A stretch of DNA of 64,000 bases, taken from Candidatus Jettenia sp. Lineage in GTDB: Bacteria; Planctomycetota; Brocadiia; Brocadiales; Brocadiaceae. Shown piece after piece: positions 19,793 through 55,327 of the stretch. The stretch spans positions 3,439,659-3,503,658 of the forward strand of contig CP091278.1 of NCBI GenBank assembly GCA_021650895.1. Reading direction: 5' to 3'. Position 1 is the stretch's first letter. Every line of letters starts with the position of its first letter. A program made the translations under genes and the position numbers. Below the pieces are notes generated by a model. The model was not told the origin of the DNA, did no database searches, and saw nothing but the letters and a program-made list of their open reading frames with translations.

Positions 19793-19921
19793 CTACCTTC
19801 GCTCCCTACCTAACTTGTGGGTAAGGATAAGTAGAAAAGGGGGAAATATTTGATATTTTTGATCAGGCAAACTTTTCTCAAGAGAAAATCCTTTCTTTCT
19901 CCCTTTTTTAAACTTATCCTT
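19459..19921 (-). mobile_element. TIR element, copy C (one end truncated)
   Basis: Left terminus ATATGCATCAAGCTAA intact at 19459-19474. Internal modules follow in the same order as copy B, with an extra segment GTGAGTGTGAGTGAGAAAAC plus CACTGACACT (about 19639-19667) shared only with copy E. The right end is lost: repeat identity stops near 19921, inside the vapC frame. Confidence 0.8.
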
Positions 19922-20287
19922 GCCTGATTTTAGCAGAATGTCATCTTTTGTGATTAAAGACGCTTCATAATGCAAGGCTGTTGCGGCAATAAGCCTGTCA
20001 TGCATTTCCAGTTCAGCCTCGATTTTGTTGGCAGCTCTCAATATTTCAGCATTTAATGGGGCAATTTCAAAATTGTCGCTTTCTTCAATCCGTTTAAGCG
20101 TATCATCAAAAGAAAGTGTAATCCTGCCTTTTCTTGCTATAAACATTATCTCGGCCAGAACAACTGCGGGCACAAATACGGTTCCTTCTGTTTCAGACGT
20201 CTGAAAAGCTTTAAGTGCATTGCTACCCAGCCTGCTATCGTCCGTAAAGTACCAGACAAGCGAATGCGTATCTGTTACATAGTCCAT
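19793..20287 (-). CDS. PIN-domain toxin (VapC type) with repeat-derived C-terminus
   Basis: Ribonuclease toxin of a type II toxin-antitoxin pair. The PIN domain occupies about residues 1-122: first acidic residues in MDYVTDTHSLVWYF (D6), E in LAEIMFIA, D in LEMHDRLIAATAL and the last in LITKDDILLKSG. About 42 residues after KSG are encoded by TIR element C (tail KKGFSLEKSLPDQK and onward), and the same bases recur non-coding in copy E near 41270-41335. The native PIN C-terminus is therefore lost and activity is uncertain. Its ATG overlaps the antitoxin stop (TAATG at 20285-20289). Confidence 0.85.
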   Translation of the reverse strand: MDYVTDTHSLVWYFTDDSRLGSNALKAFQTSETEGTVFVPAVVLAEIMFIARKGRITLSFDDTLKRIEESDNFEIAPLNAEILRAANKIEAELEMHDRLIAATALHYEASLITKDDILLKSGKDKFKKGRKKGFSLEKSLPDQKYQIFPPFLLILTHKLGRERR

Positions 20288-20523
20288 TAGAGTTCCCTGC
20301 CTTTTTCATATGGAAAAAGTGACTTCCTGGCATCAGTAAATAGAGAATCATCAATCTGGCTGCCCTTCCATATCCCTCTTAGCGAAGACCTTTTGCCTGT
20401 TTTTTTTACACCAGCCGTAATCTCCTCGGTCAGCAAATGGATAATTTTGTAAATATTTTCCAGCTTGTCATCAGGGATTTTCTCGATTTCACGCAATATT
20501 TTTTCTTTATAACTCGTCTGCAT
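20287..20523 (-). CDS. VapB-type antitoxin (DUF2281-like)
   Basis: Small protein of 78 residues, partner of the PIN toxin. It has an N-terminal helical part (KILREIEKIPDDKLENIYKI) and the C-terminal motif LRGIWKGSQIDDSLFTDAR with SLFPYEKG, which is characteristic of antitoxins paired with PIN toxins. A strong AAAGGAGG ribosome site precedes the ATG. Such antitoxins usually repress their own operon, but no operator is evident. Confidence 0.8.
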   Translation of the reverse strand: MQTSYKEKILREIEKIPDDKLENIYKIIHLLTEEITAGVKKTGKRSSLRGIWKGSQIDDSLFTDARKSLFPYEKGREL

Positions 20524-20552
20524 CTCAACCTCCTTTCAGATATATTATTATC

Positions 20553-20690
20553 TCATAATTCTTTATTGGAAGCATTATCAAATTCATAAGATACTGTTTC
20601 TAATTTGCCTGACTTATATGCCTGCCAGCGTTTTCGTGCCTCTTTCGCCCATATATGATCAATATCCGGGTCTGGTTTGTCCAGTTGCAT
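20553..20690 (-). pseudogene. remnant of an addiction-module antitoxin
   Basis: A 45-codon frame, MQLDKPDPDIDHIWAKEA then RKRWQAYKSGKLETVSYEF. The W-x-x-EA-xxRW-xAYxSGK block is the C-terminal part of the small addiction-module component family (Unstab_antitox). Only nine further codons upstream are in frame before a TAA, so the N-terminal half is missing. No toxin partner adjoins it. Confidence 0.6.
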
Positions 20691-20708
20691 AAGGATTGAA
20701 TCAACGAT

Positions 20709-21257
20709 TTAATAAGCCTTTAAGGCATGTATGGTGTCAGGCGTAATTTCTTTATCCTGGTCATTGAGCACAGCCAGAGCAATCGAATTTTCTGACCGTA
20801 TCTTTCTGGTATCATCCCAGGAAAAAATCATAGCAGAAACATTATTTTTTGTGGGATGGTTAATTGCCCTCAAAATCCTTTCTGGTTCTTTTTTAGATGA
20901 TGGTATGACAAAATCAAAATGGTGATTGAACCCGCTTTTACCGATAAAATTTATATCTTTTGTGAATCTAATATCATGCAATGAAAGAAAACGCTCCACA
21001 TCTTCTTTGAAGAAACTTGCAACCTTTGCCGGAGTCAAAACAAAAAGGTCATTTATGGCGAGCATTGCCTGTAATAGATTATGTTTTTTCTGCGGGAAAT
21101 TATCCGGACGTGCTTCAACTTCCAGACAATCTCCATGAAGCTTTACTCCAAGGCCGTTCAGGATATTATACAGTTCATTTTTTCGACGTTCGGTATTAAA
21201 CTCAAGACCGCTTATTTCTAAATCCCGGATTATATAACCGTCATCGGTAAGGAGCAA
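20709..21257 (-). pseudogene. DUF1828/DUF1829 protein, 5'-truncated
   Basis: About 182 codons from a TTG at 21257, with LLTDDGYIIRDLEISG (DUF1828 part) and a C-terminal DUF1829 part (FDFVIPSSKKEPERIL, ending IHALKAY). In the same frame, conserved family residues continue upstream as VVDRHNDYLQIYIKATPSG up to a TAG at 21318-21320, so the true N-terminus lay further upstream and has been lost or joined to the next remnant. Members of this family are often found in defence or prophage regions; function is unknown. Confidence 0.65.
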
Positions 21258-21317
21258 ACCGGAAGGCGTTGCCTTTATATATATCTGCAGATAATCATTA
21301 TGCCTATCAACAACAGC

Positions 21318-21611
21318 CTAAGATTTCAACGCCGCTGCGTCTAAAACCTCTTTATAAAGTGGTAATGAACTCATGTATTTCAAACTTTGTGCCTTATTTT
21401 TTCCCAAATTTCTGTAAAGCACGTAGAAGAGGTGATATTCAAAGACTTCGCGTGTCAACCGCGGCTCTGCAACAATTTTGGTATCTGAAAAAAGCTCCGG
21501 ACGCCTTGCACGCATATAACTGGAGGGGCTCAAGCCTTGAACACTACTGACATCAAGTTCCTTGATGGTATGTTTATGATTTGTAGCCTTTTTCTTTGAG
21601 TTATTGCTCAT
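21318..21611 (-). pseudogene. chimeric remnant, N-terminus of an unrecognised protein
   Basis: Starts at MSNNSKKKATNHKHTIKELD (ATG at 21611) and reads SSVQGLSPSSYMRARRPELF, a conserved-looking segment, up to EVFEYHL. It then changes character (FYVLYRNLGKNKAQSLKYM) and stops at the TAG at 21318. The DUF1828 frame continues immediately past this stop in the same phase. This looks like two gene fragments joined by a deletion. I do not recognise the family. Confidence 0.45.
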
Positions 21612-21627
21612 AAATTTTATTCTCTCT

Positions 21628-21765
21628 CTACACTTCAGCAATCATCCTTTCAATCCGCATTTCAGCCTCTTGGCGCAAAAAACGCACGCCTTCTGATGCT
21701 TCCACTTCTTTATCAAGTTTGACAACTATTTCTTGTTGGACAGGAAGAGGGGGAAGATAGACCAT
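21628..21765 (-). pseudogene. 3' remnant of a type I restriction specificity gene (hsdS)
   Basis: A 45-codon frame, MVYLPPLPVQQEIVVKLDKE then SEGVRFLRQEAEMRIERM. The PPLPVQQEIV-KLD block is the conserved end of HsdS target-recognition halves. Everything upstream of it is gone; the frame is preceded two codons earlier by the stop of the next remnant. Confidence 0.65.
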
Positions 21766-21768
21766 TGG

Positions 21769-21984
21769 TTAATGTGCATTCTTTCTAGCCAAAATATTCT
21801 CGTGTATATTAGTGAGTGTAATATTCGGCTCTATGCTTTTCTGGTTATTAAACATCTTCTGATATTCAGGGCTTAACGCATACATCTGCCGATATAGTAA
21901 TGTGTCTCCTCTCTTCCAGTCGAGTTGATGTAATCTTTCAATAACCTTTAAATCCGTATCTGTAGCTTCGTTGGTTCCTGGCAT
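21769..21984 (-). pseudogene. 5' remnant resembling a type I restriction gene
   Basis: 71 codons, MPGTNEATDTDLKVIERLHQ then DWKRGDTLLYRQMYALSPEY and EPNITLTNIHENI. It resembles the N-terminus of HsdR-like proteins, but the nuclease motifs that should follow are missing. Its stop is two codons before, and in phase with, the hsdS fragment, which suggests a large internal deletion joined the two. Assignment is by resemblance only. Confidence 0.4.
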
Positions 21985-22108
21985 GGTTAGTTTATTTTGG
22001 GTTTATACGAATTCTTTAAGATTGTATATCTATAAAAAGAAGAGATTAACCCTTAAAATTTCAAAGGGCATATTATCGTAAGAAGCTTTTTGTATTTCAA
22101 GAATTTTA

Positions 22109-22137
22109 TTGACAATTGTTAGTTCTTACTGTATAAG
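22109..22137 (+). promoter_or_regulatory. strong sigma70-type promoter with no downstream protein gene
   Basis: TTGACA at 22109-22114, exactly 17 bp, then TATAAG at 22132-22137. Expected start of transcription is about 22144. The nearest plus-strand coding gene starts at 22500, beyond a terminator. Confidence 0.65.
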
Positions 22138-22143
22138 TTAACC

Positions 22144-22235
22144 TTGTTGTTATACTATAAAAGATTATATTTGTTTTATTGTAAAGGCTTCGCTCATCTG
22201 TATCTTTCATGGTTCAAATGAGCAAAGCCTTTTTC
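22144..22235 (+). ncRNA. candidate small RNA, about 90 nt
   Basis: Bounded by the promoter at 22109-22137 and the intrinsic terminator at 22185-22234. It has no open frame with a ribosome site. The 5' part is an unstructured U/A-rich stretch of about 40 nt; the 3' part is the terminator hairpin. This layout is common to regulatory sRNAs, but no known family is recognised. Confidence 0.4.
22185..22234 (+). terminator. intrinsic terminator
   Basis: AGGCTT-C-GCTCAT-C-TG at 22185-22200 pairs with CA-A-ATGAGC-A-AAGCCT at 22215-22230, giving a stem of about 16 bp with two mismatches, followed by TTTTTC. Confidence 0.7.
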
Positions 22236-22499
22236 ATTTCCTAAGATTCAGGGAATTATCCATCTTACCCTTTTAGACCTTCCAACTGTTTAGCCACGAA
22301 TGGACACGAATTTACACGAATTGAGAACCATATCTATTTATAGCCGACGTCAAAAATAAGTTGACGTAGGGCAAGGCTTTAGCCTTGCCAGGGGCAATCC
22401 TAAAGGATCGCCCTACAAAGAAATGGCGGAATTATTACGTAAATTACTTAAATATTTTTTTATTTTAAAAATCTTATTTTTAAGAAAGGAGGATTACGT
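22235..22499. other. intergenic with repeats
   Basis: Contains a CCACGAATGGACACGAATTT motif (22294-22313), also seen near 23950, a short palindromic element (22366-22416) and the AAAGGAGG ribosome site of the next gene. Confidence 0.6.
22366..22416 (-). repeat. short form of the palindromic element, copy S6
   Basis: 51 bp, GTAGGGCAAGGCTTTAGCC to CTAAAGGATCGCCCTAC; it lacks the central ACATGCACGG segment of the 73-bp copies. Confidence 0.8.
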
Positions 22500-22769
22500 A
22501 TGAACGCATTTTTTGTATGTCCCAAGTGCGGTAATGATAAAGAATTTAATATCTTTACCAGTAGTTTTCAGGCTATCAAACAGTCGCCTGAACTTGGGAA
22601 ACGTGTAGACGAGAGTGATGTTTTGCCTAGTTTACGACAAAACGATACTCATATCGAGTGTAAATGTTGCTTTCAGAGAATTGAATATGACAGCGCAGCA
22701 ACGATTGGTAAGAGATATATTCAAATGACTCAAAAACTTTTAAAAGTAAAACATATCCCTGCCAAGTAG
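22500..22769 (+). CDS. small zinc-ribbon protein
   Basis: 89 residues with two Cys pairs: CPKCGNDKEFNIF near the N-terminus and CKCCFQRIEYDS in the second half, which would bind one zinc ion. The strong ribosome site AAAGGAGG lies 7 nt before the ATG. No further domain; function is not recognised. It is followed by a bidirectional hairpin terminator and has no operon partner. Confidence 0.75.
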   Translation: MNAFFVCPKCGNDKEFNIFTSSFQAIKQSPELGKRVDESDVLPSLRQNDTHIECKCCFQRIEYDSAATIGKRYIQMTQKLLKVKHIPAK

Positions 22770-22811
22770 GGCATTTCACTTGAAATTCCTGAAGAAGACC
22801 ATACAGCAAGC

Positions 22812-22839
22812 TTGAAAAGGTTCTAAAACCTTTTCAAGA
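22812..22839. terminator. hairpin between convergent genes
   Basis: CTTGAAAAGGTT and AACCTTTTCAAG form a perfect 12-bp stem with a 4-nt loop, between the ends of the zinc-ribbon gene and rtcA. The T-run is weak on both sides, so it may act as a bidirectional terminator. Confidence 0.6.
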
Positions 22840-22901
22840 ACTTTATGGCGGCAAAAAGACAAAATTTTTGTAATGTAATTTATTCAACCGTGTGGTACTG
22901 A

Positions 22902-23942
22902 TTACCCATGGTGTATTTCTACAGATCCTTCCTCGTTCAATTTCCCGGAAACGTTGATTGTTACCGGCAGGAATAATTTTACAACATCAATATTTGTTAA
23001 CAGGTGTTGCGTAATCCTGGGTGTGACGAAGTATGATGTGCCTTTCGTGAGTGCAAGGGGGATGATGAGCTGGTCAGCAAGGTATTCATCAACAACTCCC
23101 TTTGTTTTCAGGAAAGAAAGGAACTCATCGCAAGCCTCATCGGCAACGGTTTCTGCGCGTTTGCCAATGGCGCCGAGACTAAAATAACAGCACTGACTGT
23201 GTTCAAATTTTCCTATCAGGAGTAACAGGGTGCCTCTTCCAATGGAAGGCGCTTCTTCTATAGATATCTCATGGGGTATACCATACTCTAAGAGCCTTTT
23301 CTTTGCTTGCAATTGTTGCCGTTGAGCAACAGCTCTATCGAGATTACCTATCATAGATATTCCCATTACCTGAATAAGTTTTCCTCTATCTTCAATGTGC
23401 AATGGATATTGCGGTCTTGCCGGGTGTATGGTAACAAAAACCTCGCCATTACCACGTGGGTAAAAACCTGCCTTCATGATTTCTATTTCTGCATGAAAAC
23501 CTGTGTGTTTTAGAAAGTATAACCACTGCAGCTTGAGGTAATCTGCACAAGGGCTATGAATTACGTGTGTTCCCCCTGTTACGGTGATTGAAGAGGGTTT
23601 ATCTCTTAGACTCAAGGGATAAAAGACAGATTGCAATACGAGAGGCACAGAGCCTGCCGTGCCAATATCAAAACGATACACTCCTGTTTGTATTTCTCCT
23701 GGATAGAACTTAAGATCGGTGGACCGAAGATAGTTTCCGGTGACTTCTGCATTGCAGACTTTAGCGGTGGCATTCACTGCTTGTAAATGCTGGTAGCTAA
23801 GTCCAGGTGTTTTTCTATTGGCCCGTATATTGAATATCTCAAAAGGTTTTTTTGTAATAGACGATAACGAGAGAGATGTGCGTAAAATTTGTCCGCCTCC
23901 CTCGCCGAACGACCCATCGATTTTGATAATGTTCTCTTGCAT
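22902..23942 (-). CDS. rtcA: RNA 3'-terminal phosphate cyclase
   Basis: Converts RNA 3'-phosphate ends to 2',3'-cyclic phosphates using ATP, through an enzyme-AMP intermediate. 346 residues from the ATG at 23942 ([20 protein letters not shown]); an in-frame GTG at 23954 falls within a CCACGAATGA repeat and is less likely. Motifs: [10 protein letters not shown] at 13-22, RGNGEV, and the catalytic His (about H313) in RITQHLLTN. No RtcB ligase or RtcR regulator is adjacent, so it appears to be a stand-alone RNA repair gene. Confidence 0.93.
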
Positions 23943-24005
23943 ATTTTTGGCCACGAATGATCACGAGTTTATTCGTGGCTAAACTTGCTTTGTATAAAAA
24001 CAAAA

Positions 24006-24030
24006 GGGTAGAGCATTGTATGCCCTACCC
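24006..24030 (-). terminator. terminator of the cytochrome c gene
   Basis: On the minus strand GGGTAGGGC and GCTCTACCC form a stem (24006-24030), followed by TTTTGTTTTT. It lies 41 bp after the cytochrome stop codon. Confidence 0.8.
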
Positions 24031-24070
24031 TCCCTGTATTGGTCGAATAAACCTGTGTATTACTTATACC

Positions 24071-24418
24071 CTATTTTCCATTGAATCCACGAACTAACTG
24101 AACAAGAGGGTCGAGGTCTGCAAGATCAACCCCAAGGTCTGAAAGTTTTACATAATTTGGATTCTTTGTGCCGTTAGTCATGGATTCTTTCATCTGCGCA
24201 TCAGTTCTTGACTTCTGATAATCAGGGCTAGTAAAGTCTGGTACGCCAAATTGCTTTCCGGCTTCACTGCCTTTTCCATCTGCTCCATGGCACAGTTCAC
24301 AGGTATCCTTATACGTTTTTTGGATATCTCCGGCATGTACCAGAGAACTTGAAAAGCCAAGATATAGACCAAACATCGTTGCAAGAGAAATTGCACAGTA
24401 ATTAAAAACCTTTTTCAA
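24071..24418 (-). CDS. monohaem c-type cytochrome
   Basis: Small soluble electron carrier, 115 residues. It starts with a TTG at 24418, eight nt after GGAGG. A signal peptide (SLATMFGLYLGFSSSLVHAG) with cleavage likely after VHA directs it outside the cytoplasm. One haem motif C40-E-L-C43-H44, and M76 or M80 in AQMKESM is a plausible axial ligand. GADGKGSEAGKQFGVPDF after the haem is typical of class I cytochromes. It has its own terminator and is probably monocistronic. The redox partner is unknown. Confidence 0.9.
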   Translation of the reverse strand: MKKVFNYCAISLATMFGLYLGFSSSLVHAGDIQKTYKDTCELCHGADGKGSEAGKQFGVPDFTSPDYQKSRTDAQMKESMTNGTKNPNYVKLSDLGVDLADLDPLVQLVRGFNGK

Positions 24419-24523
24419 CTAAATTTCCTCCTAAAAAATGTTACCTTTGTTATGAGTAAATACCACGAGATATGTTTTAGCATAAATTTTATGGAAATTT
24501 CCCGGAATATGCATCACCTCCAA

Positions 24524-25039
24524 TCAAATTTGCTTAATTTTTAATTCTATAAATTTTATAACGTTATTCAAGTCAATTTTGTTAAAAGTAGGTATTGGAG
24601 AGCCTGTCTGTAGAGTGCTTACAATTCTTATATGATTTTTGTATATCCTGTCTGTTGATCTGATTGGTAAACAATTGTTATAGATTTCAATATAAGGATA
24701 TCGATATTTTTTATAACCTTCGACAAGTACTATATCGACATCGGAATACGCATGATTCACAATATCCTGTATTGAGAGAGGATGTTGATTAAGTCTTTTT
24801 ATGATTGCTAACTTTTCTGGTGAAGATATGGAGACAATATCTGCTCCTGCTTCATAATGTCTGTAAGTATCCTTTCCCTCATAATCCATCTCAAAATGTG
24901 GAATATTGTATTTAATAGTTCCAACCCTATATCCCTTTTTTTTCAAGTACGGTATAATAAGTCCAATGAGGGTGGTCTTACCTACATTTTGTTTACCAAT
25001 GATTGAAATAACAGGAAAATCTCTTGTGTCTTTTGGCAA
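24524..25039 (-). CDS. mobB: molybdopterin-guanine dinucleotide biosynthesis protein B
   Basis: GTP-binding adaptor in molybdenum cofactor maturation. 171 residues with Walker A GKQNVGKTT (15-23), then GYRVGTIKYNIPHFEMD, DTYRHYEAGAD and DIVLVEGYKKYRYPYIEIY, all MobB signatures. The start is a TTG at 25039 without a clear ribosome site; no in-frame ATG lies nearby. No other molybdenum cofactor gene is in the window. Confidence 0.88.
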   Translation of the reverse strand: MPKDTRDFPVISIIGKQNVGKTTLIGLIIPYLKKKGYRVGTIKYNIPHFEMDYEGKDTYRHYEAGADIVSISSPEKLAIIKRLNQHPLSIQDIVNHAYSDVDIVLVEGYKKYRYPYIEIYNNCLPIRSTDRIYKNHIRIVSTLQTGSPIPTFNKIDLNNVIKFIELKIKQI

Positions 25040-55004: not shown

Positions 55005-55061
55005 AAAACAAAAAGCCTTACTGTCAAGATATTCAGTGAGAACATCTTCGGCAGTAAGGCT
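55005..55061 (-). terminator. long hairpin with T-run (minus strand)
   Basis: AGCCTTACTG (55052-55061 on the minus strand) pairs with CAGTAAGGCT (55014-55023), with an inner AAGAT/ATCTT stem, then TTTTTGTTTT. It could end the response-regulator transcript that starts at 55696, or a small RNA arising nearer. Confidence 0.65.
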
Positions 55062-55075
55062 ATCTTATTTCTATC

Positions 55076-55117
55076 GTGTCAGTTATGAGTGTAAGTGTCT
55101 GTTATGTATACTGACAC
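55076..55117. repeat. inverted repeat upstream of the terminator
   Basis: GTGTCAGT at 55076-55083 pairs with ACTGACAC at 55110-55117 across 26 nt. Together with the adjacent terminator it forms a two-hairpin structure on the minus strand. Confidence 0.55.
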
Positions 55118-55327
55118 TGTTCACGAACACTCTCCACGGTTACAAGATCCTTTCCTTTGCGTCCCCTGATTACTCAAGGTTTGCCTTTATCGTAATGTAC
55201 TCTATATCTTAAATAACATGCATATCTCTGTATTTCAAGAAAAATATAAAATCTTAAAAAAAGGCATAAGAGATGATCTGCAGGTAATAAAGAGAAAGAA
55301 AGGTTACCTGGCTTAGTCTTTGTTACG

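What the first reader, a model, noticed from the sequence alone, without database searches (positions are those of the whole stretch)
22109..22235. Candidate small RNA with consensus promoter and terminator
TTGACA-17-TATAAG is followed 50 bp later by a 16-bp terminator stem and T-run, with no coding frame between. It lies at the edge of the decayed island, so it could be an independent regulator or an antisense/antitoxin RNA left from it.
Basis: partly seen in the sequence, partly recalled or inferred. Interest (0 to 1): 0.5.

Follow-up and report, generated by a model that had tools for sequence, protein, structure and literature searches.

The report
Conserved terminator leader before zinc-ribbon gene
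A short promoter-plus-hairpin element in an anammox-type bacterium is real and conserved, but it travels with one small zinc-ribbon protein gene, so it looks like that gene's own built-in brake rather than a free-standing small RNA left over from a decayed island.

Summary
TTGACA-17-TATAAG (22109-22137) is followed, 45 bases on, by a terminator-like hairpin and T-run (22183-22234), with no coding frame. The promoter alone is not beyond chance. The hairpin is (fold z = -5.25), and it is conserved. A covariance model finds one strong copy in each of 14 of 33 family genomes (65-85 bits); the best other match among 62 order genomes is 39 bits. Six of 18 pairs show two-sided change, four of them in the short inner helix. 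In 13 of 14 genomes the hairpin lies 90-440 nt upstream, same strand, of one group of a small zinc-ribbon gene (here 22500-22769). In the 14th that gene is truncated. No left-flank ORF of this genome recurs in the other flanks examined, so the element belongs to the gene, not to the island.

Best reading: a 5' leader with premature termination that limits read-through into the gene. The conserved loop can pair with the gene's long Shine-Dalgarno (GAAAGG in 12 of 13), but shuffle controls make this only suggestive. There are no transcript data, no antiterminator shared by all genomes was seen, and an independent sRNA is not excluded. It is an RNA motif not matched by Rfam, of an ordinary kind.

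The parts
22109..22137 (+). Promoter-like TTGACA-17-TATAAG
   Evidence: Read; TTGACA kept in G001 and G002, TTGACT-17-TATAAA in G012. Alone not beyond chance.
22144..22234 (+). Predicted short leader RNA of about 91 nt (start inferred 7 nt after the -10, end at the T-run)
   Evidence: Inference; no transcript data. Fold of 22144-22236 z = -5.25.
22183..22234 (+). Conserved intrinsic-terminator-like hairpin and T-run
   Evidence: Alignment A3 of 13 genomes, 6 of 18 pairs with two-sided change; model R1: 14 of 33 family genomes, 65-85 bits, one strong copy each.
22203..22209 (+). Conserved pyrimidine motif in the hairpin loop (TCTTTCA here; CCTTTC in most relatives)
   Evidence: CTTT can be read in all 13 rows, 10 of 69 terminator-like hairpins carry CCTTT or CTTTC in the loop and all 10 are copies of this element.
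22484..22492 (+). Extended Shine-Dalgarno GAAAGGAGG of the downstream gene, possible partner of the loop
   Evidence: GAAAGG in 12 of 13 genes with the element, 4 of 19 relatives without it; 16S tail CCTCCTTTCT.
22500..22769 (+). 89-aa protein gene with zinc-ribbon-like CPKC ... CKCC motifs, no named family
   Evidence: only sub-threshold matches; relatives in 32 of 33 family genomes.

Best explanation
The element is the 5' leader of the small zinc-ribbon gene 22500-22769. A sigma-70-like promoter starts transcription near 22144. Most transcripts stop at the intrinsic terminator 22183-22234, giving a leader RNA of about 90 nt, and a minority read through into the gene, which keeps its expression low or conditional. 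SHOWN by sequence: a conserved, covarying hairpin with a T-run; same-strand linkage to one group of the gene. INFERRED: that the promoter-like pair before the hairpin is used, that the hairpin terminates, that the gene is read from this promoter, and that read-through is regulated. SPECULATIVE: that the loop (CCUUUC-like, resembling the 3' tail of 16S rRNA) pairs with the gene's GAAAGG Shine-Dalgarno and also damps translation, in cis or through the released leader RNA.
For: One strong copy in each of 14 of 33 family genomes, 0 strong in the other 29 order genomes, and all 7 of 294 matching genomes of a phylum draw lie in the family. 13 of 14 lie 90-440 nt upstream, same strand, of a gene of one group (13 element-bearing rows plus G036, support 98/99). 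Element plus gene is the conserved unit: no other ORF family is shared by all 13; rtcA adjoins in 9 of 14; on the left, one family is shared by 5 genomes (G031, G028, G020, G013, G026), others by two at most, none with this genome. In G023 and G018 only 28 nt lie between hairpin end and Shine-Dalgarno region, too few for another promoter clear of the hairpin; in G019 there are 36, with a best pair scoring 0.0. In 11 of 14 the nearest left ORF is on the other strand (small ORFs that overlap the element in G031, G018 and G013 set aside), so the hairpin is not there to end an upstream gene. In G026, where a deletion took the Shine-Dalgarno and about the first half of the gene, the loop (CCTTTC to CCTTAC) and the -10 region have changed too. 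Covariation: 24 cells changed on both sides against 10.5 +/- 2.1 in shuffles.
Against: No transcript data. No antiterminator or leader peptide shared by the 13 genomes was seen, so a regulated switch is not shown. The promoter-like pairs are weak: only G001 and G003 have one that under 5% of shuffles reach, and the best-scoring pair is not the 16-17 nt pair nearest the hairpin in G002, G003 and G028. In this genome 254 nt with dispersed repeats separate hairpin and Shine-Dalgarno, and in G001 and G003 promoter-like pairs scoring above 10 lie in that interval (5.4 here), so the gene may have its own promoter there. G036, of another family, has a gene of the same group without the element. G026 keeps a strong hairpin although its gene is truncated. 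The Shine-Dalgarno is the loop's best site in 9 of 13 genomes but not in the three of this genus or G012; shuffled Shine-Dalgarno windows reach the energy in under 5% of cases in 7 of 13, and shuffled loops in under 5% in only 3 of 13. The loop could equally pair with the AAAGG of the 5' arm.
Confidence: 0.6

Rival explanations
1. An independent trans-acting small RNA of about 90 nt whose conserved pyrimidine loop pairs with Shine-Dalgarno regions of other mRNAs; it merely sits next to the zinc-ribbon gene.
For: Own promoter-like pair and terminator-like hairpin; loop motif seen only in copies of this element (10 of 69 hairpins); hairpin kept in G026 although the gene is truncated; in this genome the gene is 316 nt from the hairpin start.
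Against: 14 of 14 strong copies adjoin the gene or its remnant, although neighbours beyond it change. 16 of the 19 family genomes without the element had a gene in the tree, all outside the element group. In G023 and G018 the gene seems readable only through the hairpin.
Confidence: 0.25
2. A plain constitutive terminator that shields the zinc-ribbon gene from transcription entering from the variable left flank, with the gene using its own promoter downstream.
For: Stable hairpins (-17.3 to -34.8 kcal/mol for the 13 aligned rows); variable left flanks; promoter-like pairs scoring above 10 in the interval of G001 and G003.
Against: Nearest left ORF on the opposite strand in 11 of 14; a TTG-type pair at 16-17 nt can be placed before the hairpin in all 13 genomes with the gene, though mostly weak; no room for a second promoter in G023 and G018; does not explain the conserved loop.
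Confidence: 0.12
3. A leftover regulator (antisense or antitoxin RNA) of the decayed island.
For: It lies at the island edge; a PIN-domain gene and a small partner lie at 19793-20523.
Against: Present with the same downstream gene or its remnant in 13 other genomes, none sharing this genome's left-flank ORFs in the stretches compared; no overlapping ORF here; no direct repeats found.
Confidence: 0.03

Closest known systems
5' leaders with an intrinsic terminator (transcription attenuators)
   Same: Promoter-like pair, short leader, terminator-like hairpin, then gene on the same strand, conserved as a unit.
   Different: No antiterminator, leader peptide or ligand pocket shared by the 13 genomes was seen.
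RsaE/RoxS-type sRNAs with C-rich motifs that bind Shine-Dalgarno sequences (passages of PMC5419742 seen)
   Same: A pyrimidine motif complementary to a Shine-Dalgarno.
   Different: The Rfam RsaE match is 18.6 bits against a gathering score of 79; here one motif, next to one gene.
Type III toxin-antitoxin loci (recalled, no call)
   Same: Short RNA and terminator upstream of a protein gene.
   Different: No tandem RNA repeats found, and the zinc-ribbon protein reaches the cut-off of no Pfam or NCBIfam family.

Membership tests
Intrinsic (Rho-independent) terminator | Stable stem followed at once by a U-run | tested here: met
   all 13 rows have a T-rich tail, interrupted in G019 and G016.
Intrinsic (Rho-independent) terminator | Stops RNA polymerase | not testable with these tools
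   Needs in vitro or reporter assay.
Transcription attenuator leader | Terminator between a promoter and the gene, conserved with that gene | tested here: met
   13 of 14 strong copies; the 14th adjoins a gene remnant. The promoter part is only a weak consensus match.
Transcription attenuator leader | Mutually exclusive antiterminator or leader peptide | tested here: inconclusive
   One energy-based fold per genome and an ORF listing show none shared by all 13; the three genomes of this genus share a leader-loop pairing. Not filed as a classical attenuator.
Transcription attenuator leader | Regulated read-through into the gene | not testable with these tools
   No expression data.
Independent trans-acting sRNA | Own transcription unit without dependence on a neighbouring gene | tested here: inconclusive
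   Own promoter-like pair and hairpin, but 14 of 14 strong copies adjoin the same gene or its remnant.
Any Rfam 15 family | Covariance-model match at the gathering score | tested here: not met
Type III toxin-antitoxin | Tandem RNA repeats before a toxin gene | tested here: not met
   One search finds no direct repeats in 21600-22520 (diverged copies could be missed).
Antisense RNA | Overlaps a gene on the other strand | tested here: not met
   No ORF of 60 aa or more overlaps 22109-22235.

The most novel reading that the evidence does not exclude
A terminator hairpin whose loop copies the Shine-Dalgarno-binding tail of 16S rRNA (CCUUUC), so that one small element both ends transcription early and, as part of the mRNA or as the released leader RNA, masks the ribosome site of the gene that follows: a two-step brake particular to this anammox-type family.
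Probability: 0.2. Interest if true: 0.55.

Novelty: new member of a known kind. Interest (0 to 1): 0.35.

Why it matters
Regulatory RNAs of anammox bacteria seem little studied: two searches (11 papers, 5 papers) listed no such study by title or start of abstract; a third was too broad to count, with 15 of 35,259 papers seen. The one Kuenenia paper looked at (passages) removed reads of 53 structural RNA genes, sRNA included, before analysis. This is a concrete conserved RNA motif with a named partner gene that RNA-seq could test. If the loop pairs with the Shine-Dalgarno, it would show an economical way to couple two levels of control.

Tried and rejected
Rfam at gathering and relaxed thresholds: nothing above a gathering score at the site. 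Repeats: none found locally; the hairpin is single copy in the genome. Leader peptide and mini-ORF: an ORF MVQMSKAFFIS sits on the hairpin's 3' arm and T-run, but the frame closes after two codons in G031 and G028, is not kept in G003 and has no start in G019, so rejected. Antiterminator: best folds of leader plus 5' arm differ between genera; the three genomes of this genus share a pairing of leader with loop. Protein function: only sub-threshold matches in Pfam, NCBIfam and PHROGs; PDB sequence search gave 84 weak matches, best E 0.082, those shown being Ras proteins, taken as chance; the structure prediction was of low confidence (mean pLDDT 55.6), so no fold search was run. Weaker model matches were taken as chance terminators and not followed up: at E <= 0.1, 28 of 33 family genomes and 38 of 62 order genomes have some match, strong ones included. 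G021 has a partial gene near a contig end, which could not be judged. Pairing against chance: see the figures in the full report. Papers: listings; two searches found no paper; passages only of PMC7438415 and PMC5419742.

Full report
What is there. The promoter-like pair and the hairpin are as described, with small corrections given in the observation check. The window lies in a 3.82-Mb single-contig genome. A contig of the same-genus relative G001 has the same length (84,484) and gene position as a record named Candidatus Jettenia ecosi, so the genome is probably a Jettenia, of the anammox family Brocadiaceae (inference; family name recalled).

Is it more than chance? The promoter alone is not: 10% of shuffles of the upstream 95 nt do as well, and only 2 of 14 genomes have a pair that under 5% of shuffles reach. 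The hairpin is: z = -5.25. DNA search of 59 genomes, own included, found near-full-length relatives in G001 and G002 (87% identity) and partial ones centred on the hairpin in G012 and G003; the remaining matches at E <= 1 are short. Reading upstream of the zinc-ribbon gene in 21 loci, I saw the hairpin in 13 and not in 8 loci of more distant relatives. The 13 were aligned. The consensus has 18 pairs, 6 with two-sided change, two in the outer stem and four in the short inner helix, where the alignment is least sure. 94.4% of cells pair against 84.6% in shuffles; covariation score 0.363 against 0.186; pairs with two-sided change 6 against 4.2 (8 of 500 shuffles reach it); every slid control is far lower. 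Relatedness inflates such shuffle contrasts, as the tool warns.

Distribution. Model R1 gives strong matches (65-85 bits, E at most 1.4e-9), one per genome, in 14 of 33 family genomes and none in the other 29 of 62 order genomes, where the best other match is 39.4 bits. In an even draw of the phylum, 7 of 294 genomes match at E <= 1e-4, all in the family. Limits: at most 150, 80 and 17 first-look candidates per genome were scored. Thirteen of the 14 trained the model and match by construction; G026 is the only new one.

Linkage. All 13 cases with an intact gene adjoin it on the same strand, hairpin start to start codon 90-440 nt. Relatives of the gene occur in 32 of 33 family genomes. In a tree of 32 rows (loci held, not all matches), the 13 with the element fall in one group with support 98/99 that also holds G036 of another family, which lacks the element; 17 of 29 inner branches are drawn open for low support, the bootstrap had not settled, and the label needs two changes on this tree. 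Sixteen of the 19 element-less family genomes are represented there, all outside the group; G009, G021 and G027 are not. Neighbours: the zinc-ribbon gene is the only ORF family shared by all 13; rtcA occurs beside it in 9 of 14 genomes; on the left, one family is shared by G031, G028, G020, G013 and G026, and others by two genomes at most (G002 and G012; G019 and G016), none with this genome (left flanks of G028 and G018 are only 0.4-0.6 kb). In G026 a deletion took the Shine-Dalgarno and about the first half of the gene; loop and -10 region have changed too. That is one case only, but it points to a tie between element and gene.

Direction of effect. In 11 of 14 the nearest left ORF is on the opposite strand, in G012 and G019 on the same strand, and G023 is ambiguous; small ORFs overlapping the element in G031, G018 and G013 were set aside. 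In G023 and G018 only 28 nt lie between hairpin end and Shine-Dalgarno region, and in G019 36 nt with no good promoter-like pair, so there the gene is probably read through the hairpin. The promoter position is not uniform: in G000, G001, G002 and G012 the pair at 17 nt lies 44-49 nt before the hairpin, elsewhere about 15-33. The top-scoring pair differs from this choice in G002 (19-nt spacing), G003 (a pair 60 nt before the hairpin) and G028 (15-nt spacing; TTGCAC-17-TATATG read by eye). So the transcript start is an estimate.

The loop. CTTT can be read in all 13 rows, while the inner stem around it varies with partial compensation. Of 69 terminator-like hairpins called in the window and 14 loci, 10 carry CCTTT or CTTTC in the loop and all 10 are this element (9 distinct, as window and L131 overlap; the scan did not recall every copy with that loop, so the other 59 may hold some). 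The gene's Shine-Dalgarno has GAAAGG in 12 of 13 element-bearing genes, in 4 of 19 relatives without it and in 3 of 51 ORFs of 150 aa or more with a Shine-Dalgarno-like word (first ATG taken as start). The 16S tail here is CCTCCTTTCT, so a long Shine-Dalgarno could simply mean strong translation. Pairing energies are -6.0 to -9.9 kcal/mol. The Shine-Dalgarno is the best site in the interval in 9 of 13, but in three of those the interval holds only 8-15 windows; the four exceptions include this genome. Shuffled Shine-Dalgarno windows do as well in under 5% of cases in 7 of 13 genomes, shuffled loops in only 3 of 13. I hold the pairing as a hypothesis.

Mechanism. Most likely: transcription starts near 22144, mostly ends at 22234, and sometimes continues into the gene. 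What decides read-through is unknown; no antiterminator or leader peptide shared by the 13 genomes was seen, so a protein, possibly the zinc-ribbon protein itself, or simple fixed leakage is the likeliest. The weight against: no expression data, weak promoter matches, possible promoters in the interval of G001 and G003, and the hairpin outliving half of its gene in G026.

Verdict. A real, conserved RNA motif of one anammox-type family, not matched by Rfam; ordinary in kind (leader terminator), mildly interesting for its loop.

Noticed in passing
22288-22423: Between hairpin and gene lie dispersed repeats: the stretch 22339-22423 (GGCAAGGCTTTAGCCTTGCC type) recurs at several places in this genome, and 22288-22322 (CCACGAATGGACACGAATT type) in several family genomes.
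   Followed up: partly
19793-20523, minus strand: PIN-domain protein with a small gene just upstream (weak DUF2281 match): a VapBC-like toxin-antitoxin pair in the variable left flank.
   Followed up: no
20709-21641, minus strand: DUF1828/DUF1829 protein: the 182-aa ORF at 20709-21257 begins inside the DUF1828 model, and the stretch up to 21641 read in one frame holds a stop, so the gene looks broken.
   Followed up: no
22100-22072, minus strand: A divergent promoter-like pair TTGAAA-17-GATAAT, the best match in 20000-25000; its first hexamer lies in the TTTCAAGAATTTTATTGAC block conserved in G001, G002 and G012.
   Followed up: no
22500-22769: The zinc-ribbon gene belongs to a family of unknown function with up to 7 matches per genome in the anammox-type family.
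   Followed up: partly
55047-55195, minus strand: c-di-GMP-I riboswitch, 55.6 bits.
   Followed up: no
L139 (G023), upstream of the zinc-ribbon gene: In G023 the reading frame of the gene is open back through the hairpin (132 codons), but in the near relative G018 it is closed by a stop, so probably chance.
   Followed up: yes
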